Shown: in pieces, positions 29,701 through 35,700 of the stretch
Numbering within the stretch: the stretch's first letter is position 1
How the letters are laid out: every line of letters starts with the position of its first letter
Assembly: GCA_916610825.1 (NCBI GenBank)
Contig: OU744448.1
Coordinates: forward strand, 35,611,993-35,675,992
DNA from: Haliclystus octoradiatus
Taxonomy: Eukaryota; Cnidaria; Staurozoa; Stauromedusae; Haliclystidae
Direction of reading: 5' to 3'
Length of the DNA stretch: 64,000 nucleotides
Notes under the pieces: model-generated
Database searches by the model: none
The model's input: only the letters and a program-made list of their open reading frames with translations
Told to the model about the DNA's origin: nothing
Position numbers and translations under genes: made by a program

Positions 29701-32700
29701 TTTGCCTGCCTGAAATTAAAAATAGATATTACCTCATTTTCAATTAACGTGGTGAGTGCCTACAATAGCTGGCATTATACACAACTAACCGCAACAGAAT
29801 TGACTGCTTTAACCAGTTTTTTGCTTTCAAGATTTTTCAATATTTTGTTGACTTGAGTCATTTGTAGATTACATTGATAACGAATGTCACGAATCCAGAT
29901 CCCTATAAACAAAAACATTTGAAAAAAGTAGAAAAACAAACAAACCATTTTATTTTATTAAAAATTAAAATTAGATTTACCTTTATTACCAGCTGTTTCT
30001 ATGATTTGGTAAACCAACTTTTCTTCTGCCTCAAATCCTTTCGTTTTACTAACACAATAATAATAATAATAATAATAATAATAATAATAATAATAATAAT
30101 AATAATAATAATAATAATAATAATAATAATAATAATAATAATAATAATAATAATAATAATAATAATAATAATAATAATAATAATAATAATAATAATAATA
30201 ATAATAATAATAATAATAATAATAATAATAATAATAATAATAATAATAATAATAATAATAATAATAATAATAATAATAATAATAATAATAATAATAATAA
30301 TAATAATAATAATAATAATAATAATAATAATAATAATAATAATAATAATAATAATAATAATAATAATAATAATAATAATAATAATAATAATAATAATAAT
30401 AATAATAATAATAATAATAATAATAATAATAATAACAATAACAATAATAATAATAATAATAATAATAATAATAATAATAATAATAATAATAATAATAATA
30501 ATAATAATAATAATAATAATAATAATAATAATAATAATAATAATAATAATAATAATAATAATAATAATAATAATAATAATAATAATAATAATAACAATAA
30601 TAAAATAATAATAATAATAATAATAATAATAATAATAATAATAATAATAATAATAATAATAATAATAATAATAATAATAATAATAATAATAATAATAATA
30701 ATAATAATAATAATAATAATAATAATAATAATAATAATAATAATAATAATAATAATAATAATAATAATAATAATAATAATAATAATAATAATAATAATAA
30801 TAATAATAATAATAATAATAATAATAATAATAATAATAATAATAATAATAATAATAATAATAATAATAATAATAATAATAATAATAATAATAATAATAAT
30901 AATAATAATAATAATAATAATAATAATAATAATAATAATAATAATAATAATAATAATAATAATAATAATAATAATAATAATAATAATAATAATAATAATA
31001 ATAATAATAATAATAATAATAATAATAATAATAATAATAATAATAATAATAATAATAATAATAATAATAATAATAATAATAATAATAATAATAATAATAA
31101 TAATAATAATAATAATAATAATATTAATAATAATAATAATAATAATAATAATAATAATAATAATAATAATAATAATAATAATAATAATAATAATAATAAT
31201 AATAATAATAATAATAATAATAATAATAATAATAATAATAATAATAATAATAATAATAATAATAATAATAATAATAATAATAATAATAATAATAATAATA
31301 ATAATAATAATAATAATAATAATAATAATAATAATAATAATAATAATAACAATAACAATAACAATAATAATAATAATAATAATAATAATAATAATAATAA
31401 TAATAATAATAATAATAATAATAATAATAATAATAATAATAATAATAATAATAATAATAATAATAATAATAATAATAATAATAATAATAATAATAATAAT
31501 AATAATAATAATAATAATAATAATAATAATAATAATAATAATAATAATAATAATAATAATAATAATAATAATAATAATAATAATAATAATAATAATACTA
31601 ATAATAATAATAATAATAATAATAATAATAATAATAATAATAATAATAATAATAATAATAATAATAATAATAATAATAATAATAATAATAATAATAATAA
31701 TAATAATAATAATAATAATAATAATAATAATAATAAATAATAATAATAATAATAATAATAATAATAATAATAATAATAATAATAATAATAATAATAATAA
31801 TAATAATAATAATAATAATAATAATAATAATAATAATAATAATAATAATAATAATAATAATAATAATAATAATAATAATAATAATAATAATAATAATAAT
31901 AATAATAATAATAATAATAATAATAATAATAATAATAATAATAATAATAATAAATATTATCCAATAGCAGTAAAACAGTGCTCAATGTCTGTTGACAGAG
32001 CTGTAAATATAAATAGAGGAGTCAAAGACTACACATTTTGTTACTGTAACTTGAAGTTTCACGCTTTATTGCTACAATTCTAAAACATATACCTATAGCA
32101 ATTAACCAAAGACTTTCCGATTTATCATCTAATAACACTATTTATGAAAACAGCAAAAATACTTACAAAGACGCCTTAACAGCGAGTGGCCACACTACTA
32201 CTAATTTAAAATACGAACCAAGGCCAGCAACATCAAGCCGTAGAAAAGGGAAAAGGAGGAGAAATGTCACATGGTTTAACCCACCGTTCAACAAAAGTGT
32301 GAAAAGCAACATTGGCCGAACATTCCTCAACCTAGTCAAAAAGCACTTTCCGAAGACAAGCAAGCTACATAAGATTTTCAATCAAAACACGCTAAAAGTA
32401 AGTTACAGTTGTACTTCCAATATGAAAACAATCATTACTAACCACAACAAGAATTTAACAAATACAGAAATGGAAGTAACAGAAAATGCGCAATTATGCA
32501 ACTGCCGCACAAAGGAAAATTGCCCATTAAACAATAGATGCCTTATGGAAGGATTAATCTACAACGCCAAAGTGACTACCCCGGAAGACCAAGAGGGTAA
32601 AAATTACATCGGTCTAACGGAAAACTCTTTCAAGACACGCTACACACAGCACACAAGCACATTCCGGCATGATAAACATACACACAACACGCAACTATCA

Positions 32701-35700
32701 AAATATATTTGGGAACAGAAGGACAAAGCCACCGACTACAACATCGAATGGACAGCTCTATCGAGAGCAAAGCCATACAATAATATAACGAAAAGATGCC
32801 AGCTATGCCTGGCAGAAAAATATCATATCATTTGTTCCAAAAAAGCATTACTTAACAAAAGATCTGAGTTAATTTCAAAATGTAGGCACGAGAATAAATT
32901 TTATTTTACTAATTATAAATCGACTAAAACATAACCTGTAACAATTAAATGCCGCATAGGAAACGATCACAAAGAAAACACGCACATTGCAATACAATAG
33001 GCTTTATCCCATTTAACAATAGCTGCGATTTATGTAAGTTTATATCAGAGGTACCATGTATGTTTTTTATTATCTAGTTTTAACTGTCTGATGATCGCAA
33101 TAAAGCGTGAAACTTCAAGTTACAGTAACAAAATGTGTAGTCTTTGACTCCTCTATTTATAATAATAATAATAATAATAATAATAATAATAATAATAATA
33201 ATAATAATAATAATAATAATAATAATAATAATAATAATAATAATAATAATAATAATAATAATAATAATAATAATAATAATAATAATAATAATAATAATAA
33301 TAATAATAATAATAATAATAATAATAATAATAATAATAATAATAATAATAATAATAATAATAATAATAATAATAATAATAATAATAATAATAATAATAAT
33401 AATAATAACAATGCTAACCTTGCAGACGAGCTATCCTTGTATCTGTATAGCAGAACATTACCGCTTTTGAATAATTCAATTTTTCCCTAAAAGGAATGAA
33501 TTTGTTCAAAACTTGTTCAGTAAAGTCAGAAAATCCCAACTTTACGTCAACATTTCAAACAGTAACAATTTTATGACATCTCAATCTTTTGAGTAAAATG
33601 GGAAAATTGTCAATTATTGACGAAATGGCTTGAGTTTGATTGATCATATATTCGTCATTTCTGCTTCAAATAATGCCATTCAAGTTGTATTTAATGCCCA
33701 GATACATAGTTTGATTAGACATCGGATATAAATAAGTTTAAAGGCTTTTCTACATATATTTCTTCAGACGCTTATTTTGAACAAGTTAAGCCAGATGATT
33801 AAATATAAGCATGATTTAGCATGCAACTCAAAATCTAGTTTGTTTTGAATTTTTAGAATGGAATTTGGATGTGCAGAATTTCATTTTTCTAAAATAAAAA
33901 AGGTGTAGGTACCCCCTTGGATTAATTTTGGGGCTATGGGGCTTTGAAATCATCCCATTTTTCACATCAACAAACATACACGAAAGACACAAAAACAACA
34001 AATGGTCACACATTTCAATGAAGCAACAAAAACAGTGGAGGATAAAAGTACTAGGAATATTATAAGTTGTGAAATGCAACATAAATTCGCAAATTTGTGA
34101 GGGGCTTTTTTAACTCTTACCTTCATTTTATATACTTTTTAATTATAGATTTTAATTCCGTTTTTATAAATTTAAACCAGTATGTTGTTTTACAGAAATA
34201 AAATACATTATTCATTGAAACACAAAATAAGCAGATTAGGTGTTATTATATTTCCTCAGCCAGAATTGCAATGATTAATAATATACTGATAAAAAATCAG
34301 GTTAAATCTTCTTAACATGTAAATATGTACTATCTGTACTGGTACAGTAAAACCCCGTTAAAATCACAACGGCAGTGCAAGCAAGAATGGTTATATTAAG
34401 CGGATTGATCACAGGGAGTACAAATAGTTCATGAAACAATAGAAATGTCGAACGCAGAAGTCATACTCCGAAGTTTGAGACGGATAACAAAATGGACATT
34501 TTTTTAAATGTAATAAAAATTAGTAATTTAAAACTGTTTGTTTGCTCTAGTGAGTCCCCTTTGACATTAGTTTTACAGAATTCATGTAATTCAACACGCT
34601 TCATGTTTCATCACGTCTATTCGATCAATTAATTGTCATAGCAACAGAGTCTGATATAGAACTAATGGTGTGTAACATGAAGATTTTTTTGTTATGGTAA
34701 TTAGGGGAAGTCCCGTAGACCATTCAAACATTTAAGCATGCAAAATACGTCGCTGTGAAATATTTGTAGCGTATTTGTTTCTTATTTTATATTTAGTCTT
34801 GTCAATCTATGGCTAAAAAGAATGAAACAAACCATGTATCTATCATGTACTGAAGGAAGAGAAAAATTGCACGCCAACACTTGTGTTCAAAATCTAAAGA
34901 ACAACAAACCGTGTGATTATTTTTTCTGAAGTAGAATTCACAAGTCAACTTCGAAATAGCACTGCAGTGTGTGATCAAATTAAAAGAAATTGTGACGCAA
35001 AGCGGGTTTTCAATCAAAAATCCGCCTAGAAATCAATAGTGATACAAAGCAGAATCGTGATATTATCGAGAGTGATATTAAGCGGGTAAAATTAGTTAAA
35101 TTTCATAGAGAGCGGTCACTGGTTTCTGAAAAATCGTGATAATAGGCAAGTTGTGATATTAACCGAGGTGATATTAACAGGGTTTCACTGTAGGCTACAT
35201 CCAGGAACAAAGCAATGCTTGCAATTGTCGCTTTTCTCGTGGATTGAGCCATAATACCACACAAAGATTATCAACAAATTATGGTAAGAACTGTCCAACC
35301 ACGCGGCTCGGTTGAGTATTGACGTCACAGTGATGCCACACCAAATAAGTCGATTTTTCCTGCGTAATTTGTTGATGATTTTAAAAAGATGTCTGGATGC
35401 ATTGCTTTTATGCCTGTCTAAATGTTTGTCCTCTTTTCACGCATTTATTATCTCATGAAGTGTGACGATATTTAGTTCAAAATGATCGTAATAGTGCAAA
35501 CAGCGAGCTAGGCTAATAATTTCTTCCATATTCGCCTTACATAAAAAGATATCAAGGATCATCAACAAACATATTTGATATTTGCAGCCTTCGCTTTGAT
35601 CTTTTTGTTAAGTGGGTGATTATAAACCGTTTCCATGGTGCTTCGATTGAATAGCGCTGCTATTGTTTTAGCCTAAATAAACGATCGTCCCCATGAGGAA

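What the first reader, a model, noticed from the sequence alone, without database searches (positions are those of the whole stretch)
30049..33418. A POLR3F intron made almost entirely of TTA repeats and a Penelope insertion, with both splice sites at the repeat edges
Exon-2 donor reads AAG|GTTAGCATTG then (TTA)n, and the exon-3 acceptor reads (TTA)n TTGTG TTAG. All 3.37 kb between is repeat (about 1.9 kb and 0.25 kb) plus a Penelope fragment. There is no ordinary polypyrimidine tract; TTA repeats must supply the branch and pyrimidine signals. Repeat length and splicing of an essential Pol III subunit are therefore physically coupled, similar in principle to intronic repeat-expansion effects. 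The exon model itself is strong (315 residues, exact frame).
Basis: partly seen in the sequence, partly recalled or inferred. Interest (0 to 1): 0.75.

Follow-up and report, generated by a model that had tools for sequence, protein, structure and literature searches.

The report
POLR3F intron of jellyfish TTA repeats
In a stalked jellyfish, one intron of an essential RNA polymerase III gene is almost wholly a long TTA repeat into which a retrotransposon has jumped, so the signals for cutting the intron out must come from the repeat itself; each part is of a known kind, but the combination makes a clean natural test of how repeats and splicing interact.

Summary
The window matches chromosome 3 of the staurozoan Haliclystus octoradiatus. 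The 8-exon, 315-residue POLR3F model holds; the 33418/30049 junction ranks first of 645 pairs tested. Intron 2 (3370 nt) is about 2.15 kb of TTA repeat, a 1.2 kb Penelope-like element (PLE) and 13 edge bases.

If this acceptor is used, the branch point must lie in the repeat: the next upstream AG is 1549 nt away and that zone holds no C. The pyrimidine fraction before the AG (0.67) is normal for this gene; only an unbroken run is missing. Coupling of repeat length to splicing is untested.

The PLE has a simple cause. Of 30 copies fetched, 26 have a TTA/TAA array at the 3' end, in both orientations; in all 15 with an upstream array it points the same way. They sit inside arrays (window background 0.17%). 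A PLE endonuclease of Anolis prefers ATT. The 29 other copies are 98-99% identical, so the insertion looks recent.

Best reading: an ordinary spliceable intron enlarged by microsatellite expansion and a targeted insertion. No RNA could be read, and genome-wide counts failed because that machine stayed busy.

The parts
30049..33418 (-). POLR3F intron 2 (3370 nt), the feature in question
   Evidence: junction ranked first of 645 scored against human RPC6; composition
33413..33418 (-). donor edge GTTAGC; the first 10 nt of the intron are GTTAGCATTG
33159..33412 (-). donor-side TTA array, 84.7 units (its first 3 bases overlap the PLE terminal repeat)
31957..33158 (+). 5'-shortened Penelope-like element (bounds good to a few bases), sense on + strand, so antisense to POLR3F
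   Evidence: longer copies L014 and L016 carry one ORF of 558 and 602 aa
31957..32007 (-). PLE tail extension (approximate bounds) attached to the inverted terminal repeat
   Evidence: the same tail lies between terminal repeat and array in a number of other copies
32008..32072 (-). inverted copy of the PLE 3'-terminal repeat, 65 bp exact
   Evidence: duplex with its partner -108.7 kcal/mol in the transcript
33097..33161 (+). PLE 3'-terminal repeat (pseudo-LTR end), exact partner of 32008-32072
32050..32934 (+). C-terminal part of the PLE ORF (294 aa stop to stop), with a NYIGLTENSFKTRY stretch read as GIY-YIG nuclease (motif recalled)
   Evidence: no Pfam match that supports this, none in NCBIfam
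33075..33142 (+). hammerhead-ribozyme-like motif of the PLE (CUGAUGA ... GAAA), antisense to POLR3F
   Evidence: RF02275 21.7 bits, E=0.016 in a 1251-base search, below the gathering score of 52; none at gathering score
30056..31953 (-). acceptor-side TTA array, 632.7 units; its one AG in the transcript sense is 1549 nt from the acceptor
30049..30055 (-). acceptor edge GTGTTAG, the only non-repeat bases before exon 3
33419..33486 (-). POLR3F exon 2
29981..30048 (-). POLR3F exon 3
26744..37520 (-). POLR3F coding span, exons 37520-37338, 33486-33419, 30048-29981, 29902-29790, 29709-29566, 28023-27916, 27823-27641, 26824-26744

Best explanation
This is a normal, functional U2-type intron of an intact POLR3F gene that has grown in two steps. 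First, a TTA microsatellite in the intron expanded until it filled the space between the two splice sites. Second, a Penelope-like element, of a kind whose endonuclease prefers ATT-containing AT-rich DNA, inserted inside that array and left a short copy bounded by inverted terminal repeats. In the transcript the array reads (UUA)n. It is two-thirds U and holds almost no AG or GT and no C, so it offers a U-rich tract, hundreds of UUA branch adenosines and no competing acceptor near the true one. The first AG met from those branch sites is the real acceptor. Shown: the anatomy, the gene model, the AG-free zone, and nesting of PLE copies inside arrays. Inferred: that splicing occurs at this junction in the animal, that the branch adenosine is in the repeat, and the order of events.
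For: Intact 315-residue ORF across 8 exons, PF05158 E=1.7e-90, human RPC6 E=6.6e-103 for the first 7 exons, junction best of 645. Next AG 1549 nt from the acceptor, against 23-64 nt in five of the six sister introns; the sixth, 78 nt long, has no other AG. 505 UNAY sites in that zone, 497 of them AUUAU, no C. Pyrimidine fraction before the AG 0.67, equal to introns 1, 3 and 5. PLE-like anatomy: exact inverted terminal repeats, a tail, a hammerhead-like motif. 26 of the 30 copies fetched have an array of at least 6 TTA/TAA units within 68 bp of the 3' end, 14 in one orientation and 12 in the other; 15 of 15 copies that also have an array within 1500 bp upstream have it in the same orientation; background 105 of 60401 window points, 0.17%. 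A PLE from Anolis cleaves most often at 5'-ATT-3' (PMC11167929, parts 1-2 of 4 read).
Against: No RNA evidence could be examined, so splicing at this junction is inferred. Neither Pfam nor the PDB search (L014 only) recognised the PLE protein. A weak reverse-transcriptase hit for L014 (NF041747, E=0.0012, 18.2 bits against a cut-off of 200), the anatomy and recalled motifs carry that name. The hammerhead motif does not reach its gathering score. The 30 copies are the best-scoring of 2242 candidates, of which 40 were scored, and the query ended in 7 array bases. Four of 30 (L021, L025, L026, L030) had no array of 6 or more units; in L013 and L020 the terminal repeat was not found and distance was taken from the match end. 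At least two pairs of loci are neighbours (L017/L019, L025/L026), so the sites are not all independent. The background comes from this window alone; random regions of the genome could not be fetched. Copy number of POLR3F was not tested.
Confidence: 0.75

Rival explanations
1. Length-dependent splicing: expansion or contraction of the TTA array changes how often intron 2 is retained, so array length tunes POLR3F output. A retained intron would be read as ...SSSARLA followed by about 84 leucines and then a stop, giving a truncated subunit or decay of the mRNA.
For: The retention reading frame is as stated. Pure runs of 45-173 units should be unstable in length (inference). A review says GTT repeat variation near the NTM1 acceptor negatively affects splicing with intron retention (PMC12177298, passages).
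Against: Many equivalent branch sites would remain near the AG even in a far shorter array (inference). (UUA)n of 30 and 60 units folds with 0 kcal/mol. A review says that most AU-rich repeats are predicted to be single-stranded compared with GC-rich ones (PMC6651174, passages). No expression data.
Confidence: 0.15
2. Distant branch point: the branch adenosine is not next to the acceptor but at one of the two repeat interruptions that fit yUnAy better, UUUAU at -553 or UUAAU at -1076, and the spliceosome scans hundreds of AG-free bases to the acceptor.
For: In the 1549-nt zone only those two of 505 UNAY sites have a pyrimidine in the first position. Human exons with AG exclusion zones of 381 and 438 have tested or predicted distant branch points, and one zone of 1126 is listed (PMC1431707, passages).
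Against: Nearby AUUAU sites are numerous, and the sister introns have UNAY candidates within 60 nt of the acceptor.
Confidence: 0.15
3. The gene is poorly expressed or silenced through this intron: the long triplet array and the 65-bp inverted repeat attract small RNAs or chromatin marks, as with intronic GAA/TTC expansion at IIL1 in Arabidopsis.
For: Exact 65-bp inverted repeat, -108.7 kcal/mol duplex. IIL1 precedent (PMC12177298, passages).
Against: POLR3F is expected to be essential and its ORF is intact. No small-RNA or chromatin data. AAT arrays are not GAA/TTC.
Confidence: 0.08
4. The array is an assembly artefact, collapsed or expanded in length.
For: Long pure microsatellites are hard to assemble; length accuracy is unverified here.
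Against: Assembly from 68-fold PacBio HiFi reads, QV 56.6 (PMC9975415, part 1 of 2 read). No N in the window. Pure runs of 957-1233 bp also occur at other loci (L011, L004, L031).
Confidence: 0.05

Closest known systems
Penelope-like elements with GIY-YIG endonuclease (Penelope/Poseidon type; Adineta vaga Pen families)
   Same: Inverted pseudo-LTR ends with an optional short tail at one inverted pseudo-LTR, 5' shortening (PMC3846280 passages); hammerhead motif, insertion into AT-rich DNA with cleavage at ATT (PMC11167929 parts 1-2 of 4). In A. [quoted passage not shown]
   Different: Here 26 of 30 fetched copies abut long TTA/TAA microsatellites; the passages seen describe AT-rich preference, not microsatellite nesting. 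The protein match to the family is weak here.
Human exons with long AG exclusion zones and distant branch points (Gooding et al. 2006)
   Same: A long AG-free stretch before the acceptor.
   Different: In the verified human cases the branch point and pyrimidine tract lie toward the far end of the zone. Here 1549 nt are nearly pure microsatellite with no C, longer than the 1126-nt example the paper calls striking (passages).
Intronic repeat variation that alters splicing (Arabidopsis NTM1 GTT) or expression (IIL1 GAA/TTC; Friedreich ataxia FXN)
   Same: Triplet repeat in an intron, close to an acceptor in NTM1 (passages).
   Different: Here the repeat is about 700 units, AT-only, and lies at both splice sites. 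An effect on the gene is not shown.
AT-rich introns of low-GC eukaryotes (recalled, no call)
   Same: U/A-rich introns without a pyrimidine run can be spliced.
   Different: Not a single-unit repeat over kilobases.

Membership tests
POLR3F (RPC6/RPC39, Pfam PF05158) | Full-length Rpc34 family match | tested here: met
   PF05158 E=1.7e-90, profile 5-332 of 332; human RPC6 E=6.6e-103 for residues 9-288 of the 7-exon model
POLR3F (RPC6/RPC39, Pfam PF05158) | Single intact copy in the genome | not tested
   genome search with PF05158 did not complete (first, last)
U2-type spliceosomal intron | GT-AG ends in the right frame | tested here: met
U2-type spliceosomal intron | Actually spliced in the animal | not testable with these tools
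   RNA-seq run ERR9434978 exists but cannot be read here
Penelope-like element | Reverse transcriptase with C-terminal GIY-YIG endonuclease in one ORF | tested here: inconclusive
   558- and 602-aa ORFs with FDIESFYPT, YRDD and NYIGLTE stretches in L014 and L016 (motifs recalled); no Pfam or PDB match; weak RT model hit E=0.0012; structure model too poor to use (mean pLDDT 32.7)
Penelope-like element | Pseudo-LTRs in direct or inverted orientation, optional tail | tested here: met
   65-bp exact inverted repeats; tail of about 50-55 bp at the inverted end and at a number of other copies
Penelope-like element | Hammerhead ribozyme motif | tested here: inconclusive
   none at gathering score; RF02275 21.7 bits, gathering score 52, in a narrow search
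Intronic repeat-expansion effect on the host gene | Repeat length changes splicing or expression | not testable with these tools
   needs several individuals and RNA
Distant-branch-point exon | Long AG exclusion zone | tested here: met
   1549 nt
Distant-branch-point exon | Branch point mapped far upstream | not testable with these tools
   needs lariat reads

The most novel reading that the evidence does not exclude
A microsatellite can serve as the complete 3' splice signal of an essential gene: branch point, pyrimidine tract and AG-free spacer are all one repeated triplet, with hundreds of redundant branch adenosines, so the intron can gain or lose kilobases of repeat and absorb a repeat-seeking retrotransposon without loss of splicing. 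TTA arrays would then be safe harbours in genes for the PLE family in this genome.
Probability: 0.3. Interest if true: 0.6.

Novelty: new variant of a known kind. Interest (0 to 1): 0.4.

Why it matters
It is a natural minimal 3' splice site: if RNA confirms the junction, branch choice is confined to repeat adenosines with no C and no competing AG over 1.5 kb, which lets one ask how the spliceosome picks among hundreds of nearly equal sites and whether array length matters. It also gives a concrete reason why a PLE family and a microsatellite co-occur, through the ATT preference of a PLE nuclease measured in another species.

Tried and rejected
Considered and dropped: (1) that the array is a tail made by the PLE: rejected because arrays occur in both orientations relative to the element (14 and 12 of 26) and the upstream array agrees in 15 of 15. 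(2) That the hammerhead-like motif cuts the POLR3F pre-mRNA: rejected because the motif is on the + strand, antisense to POLR3F, and the inverted copy's exact repeat stops at 32072, short of the CUGAUGA core. (3) That GTTAG at both intron ends marks a target-site duplication: intron 4 also begins GTTAG and does not end in it, so chance suffices. (4) A donor at 11640, first thought a second TTA-flanked splice site and so written in the notebook entry, is followed by TTG, not TTA. (5) Structure prediction of the PLE piece gave mean pLDDT 32.7 and was not used. (6) Comparing the two PLE-like pieces of the window gave no significant match (best E=0.19).

Not done: a genome-wide count of TTA arrays, random background regions, POLR3F copy number, and a test of strand bias of TTA arrays in introns.
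Full report
Source. The window lies at G000:C4:35611993-35675992. Contig count and lengths match the genome note of Haliclystus octoradiatus, jrHalOcto1.1: 33 scaffolds, longest 39,977,743, N50 28,991,210, N90 20,733,292 (part 1 of 2 read). C4 has the length of chromosome 3 (35.87 Mb). The species name rests on this match.

Gene. The 8-exon model on the - strand codes for 315 residues ending in a stop. It matches PF05158 over residues 13-313, E=1.7e-90. 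The first 7 exons match human RPC6 at E=6.6e-103, with no gap near the exon 2/3 junction. To test the junction I scored 645 combinations, from 10 GT/GC donors in the first 130 bases and 70 AGs, lying at least 40 nt apart, against human RPC6. The stated pair won with 301; the next was 286, a donor 9 nt downstream with the same acceptor.

Intron. Of 3370 nt, 1898 + 254 are TTA array, about 1205 are PLE and its junction, and 6 + 7 are edge bases. The long array has pure runs of 126, 50, 173, 74, 78, 45 and 72 units, besides a few of 1 or 2, separated by small changes. Its only AG in the transcript sense lies 1549 nt from the acceptor. That zone has 1031 T, 509 A, 9 G and no C. It holds 505 UNAY sites: 497 AUUAU, 6 GUUAU, one UUUAU at -553 and one UUAAU at -1076. 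In five of the six sister introns the next AG is 23-64 nt away; the sixth (78 nt) has no other AG. The pyrimidine fraction of the last 18 bases before AG is 0.67 here and 0.67, 0.67, 0.72, 0.67, 0.78, 0.78 in introns 1, 3, 4, 5, 6, 7; the longest pyrimidine run in the last 43 is 2 here and 5-11 in the others.

If retained, the intron is read from exon 2 as ...SSSARLA, then about 84 leucines, then a stop. The TTA unit itself has no stop in any frame of the sense strand; interruptions of the long array put stops into some frames.

Penelope-like element. 31957-33158 carries the C-terminal part (294 codons, stop to stop) of an ORF. Longer copies L014 and L016 have ORFs of 558 and 602 aa with stretches that I read from memory as reverse transcriptase (FDIESFYPT, YRDD) and GIY-YIG nuclease (NYIGLTENSFKTRY). 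Database support is weak: no Pfam match at all for L014, and for the window piece only two unrelated families below their cut-offs; no PDB match for L014; one weak RT model for L014 (NF041747, E=0.0012); an unusable structure model. The ends are typical: exact 65-bp inverted terminal repeats at 32008-32072 and 33097-33161, a tail of about 50-55 bp at the inverted end, and a hammerhead-like motif below the gathering score (none). Inverted pseudo-LTRs with an optional 31-bp tail are described for Adineta vaga PLEs (PMC3846280, passages).

Why it is here. The element search scored 40 of 2242 candidates and gave 114 matches. I examined the 30 loci it returned (the cap), window copy included; the other 29 match the window copy at 98-99%. 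26 of 30 have an array of at least 6 TTA or TAA units within 68 bp of the 3' end; L021, L025, L026 and L030 do not. 14 are TAA and 12 TTA in element orientation. In 15 of 15 that also have an array of 8 or more units within 1500 bp upstream, its orientation agrees. The fraction of window points outside this intron with an array of 6 or more units within 70 bp downstream is 105 of 60401, 0.17%. This shows insertion into existing arrays rather than arrays made by the element. Limits: the 30 are the best-scoring copies, the query ended in 7 array bases, at least two pairs of loci are neighbours, and the background is this window only. A PLE from Anolis cleaves most often at 5'-ATT-3' in AT-rich DNA (PMC11167929, parts 1-2 of 4 read); a TTA array is that motif repeated. 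The link to this family is inference, and so is the recent date of the insertion.

Structure in the transcript. The two 65-bp arms can pair with -108.7 kcal/mol, looping out about 1 kb and bringing the arrays together; (UUA)n of 30 and 60 units folds with 0 kcal/mol. Whether this helps splicing is open.

Literature. Searches for PLE and microsatellite targets (6 of 6 listed, 10 of 10), PLE and hammerhead (20 of 22), GIY-YIG and Penelope (15 of 358) and Penelope with Staurozoa/Haliclystus (8 of 23) listed no paper whose title or abstract start speaks of PLEs nested in TTA microsatellites or of PLEs in this animal. Searches on branch points and repeats (12 of 243, 6 of 6) and on intron retention by expansions (5 of 5) listed none of that kind on an intron whose 3' signals are a microsatellite. 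Two papers that I looked for by identifier are not held. The library holds open-licence papers only, so absence here is weak evidence of novelty.

Verdict. The likeliest account is an ordinary intron enlarged by microsatellite expansion and a targeted PLE insertion. The claim of coupling between repeat length and splicing is a fair hypothesis without evidence yet.

Noticed in passing
window 5783-9532 (+): A 1249-aa open frame with a 48-bp coding repeat x32.8 (6092-7664) and a 108-bp coding repeat x7.9 (8498-9348).
   Followed up: no
window 10362-10616: A 15-bp repeat GGTTGGTGTTATTAG x17, 97% match, open in a frame on both strands.
   Followed up: no
window 52106-52888 (-): A second GIY-YIG-type piece, PLE-like by recall (PF01541 E=2.3e-4, 21.9 bits, just under the cut-off of 22.6), not significantly similar to the one in the intron.
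   Followed up: partly
window 58473-61199 (-): A 909-aa open frame with DUF1759 and aspartic protease matches, likely a BEL/Pao-type element (label recalled).
   Followed up: no
window 11639-11670 (+): A likely donor GAG|GTGAGTCTGTTG... followed directly by a TTG repeat at the end of a coiled-coil-like open frame without Pfam match, perhaps another splice site at a repeat edge.
   Followed up: partly
window 38650-38703 (-): A (TTA)18 array in a likely intron of a C2-domain gene, about 70 nt before the likely acceptor, also TTA in the sense of the gene.
   Followed up: partly
window 18429-18716 and 25391-25789 (-): Golgin A5 exon (PF09787 E=1.5e-23) and a possible first exon of the same gene (recalled resemblance).
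   Followed up: no
L013, L029: PLE copies within about 20-80 kb of contig starts (C6:18400, C5:76952); the window itself ends about 198 kb from the end of C4.
   Followed up: no
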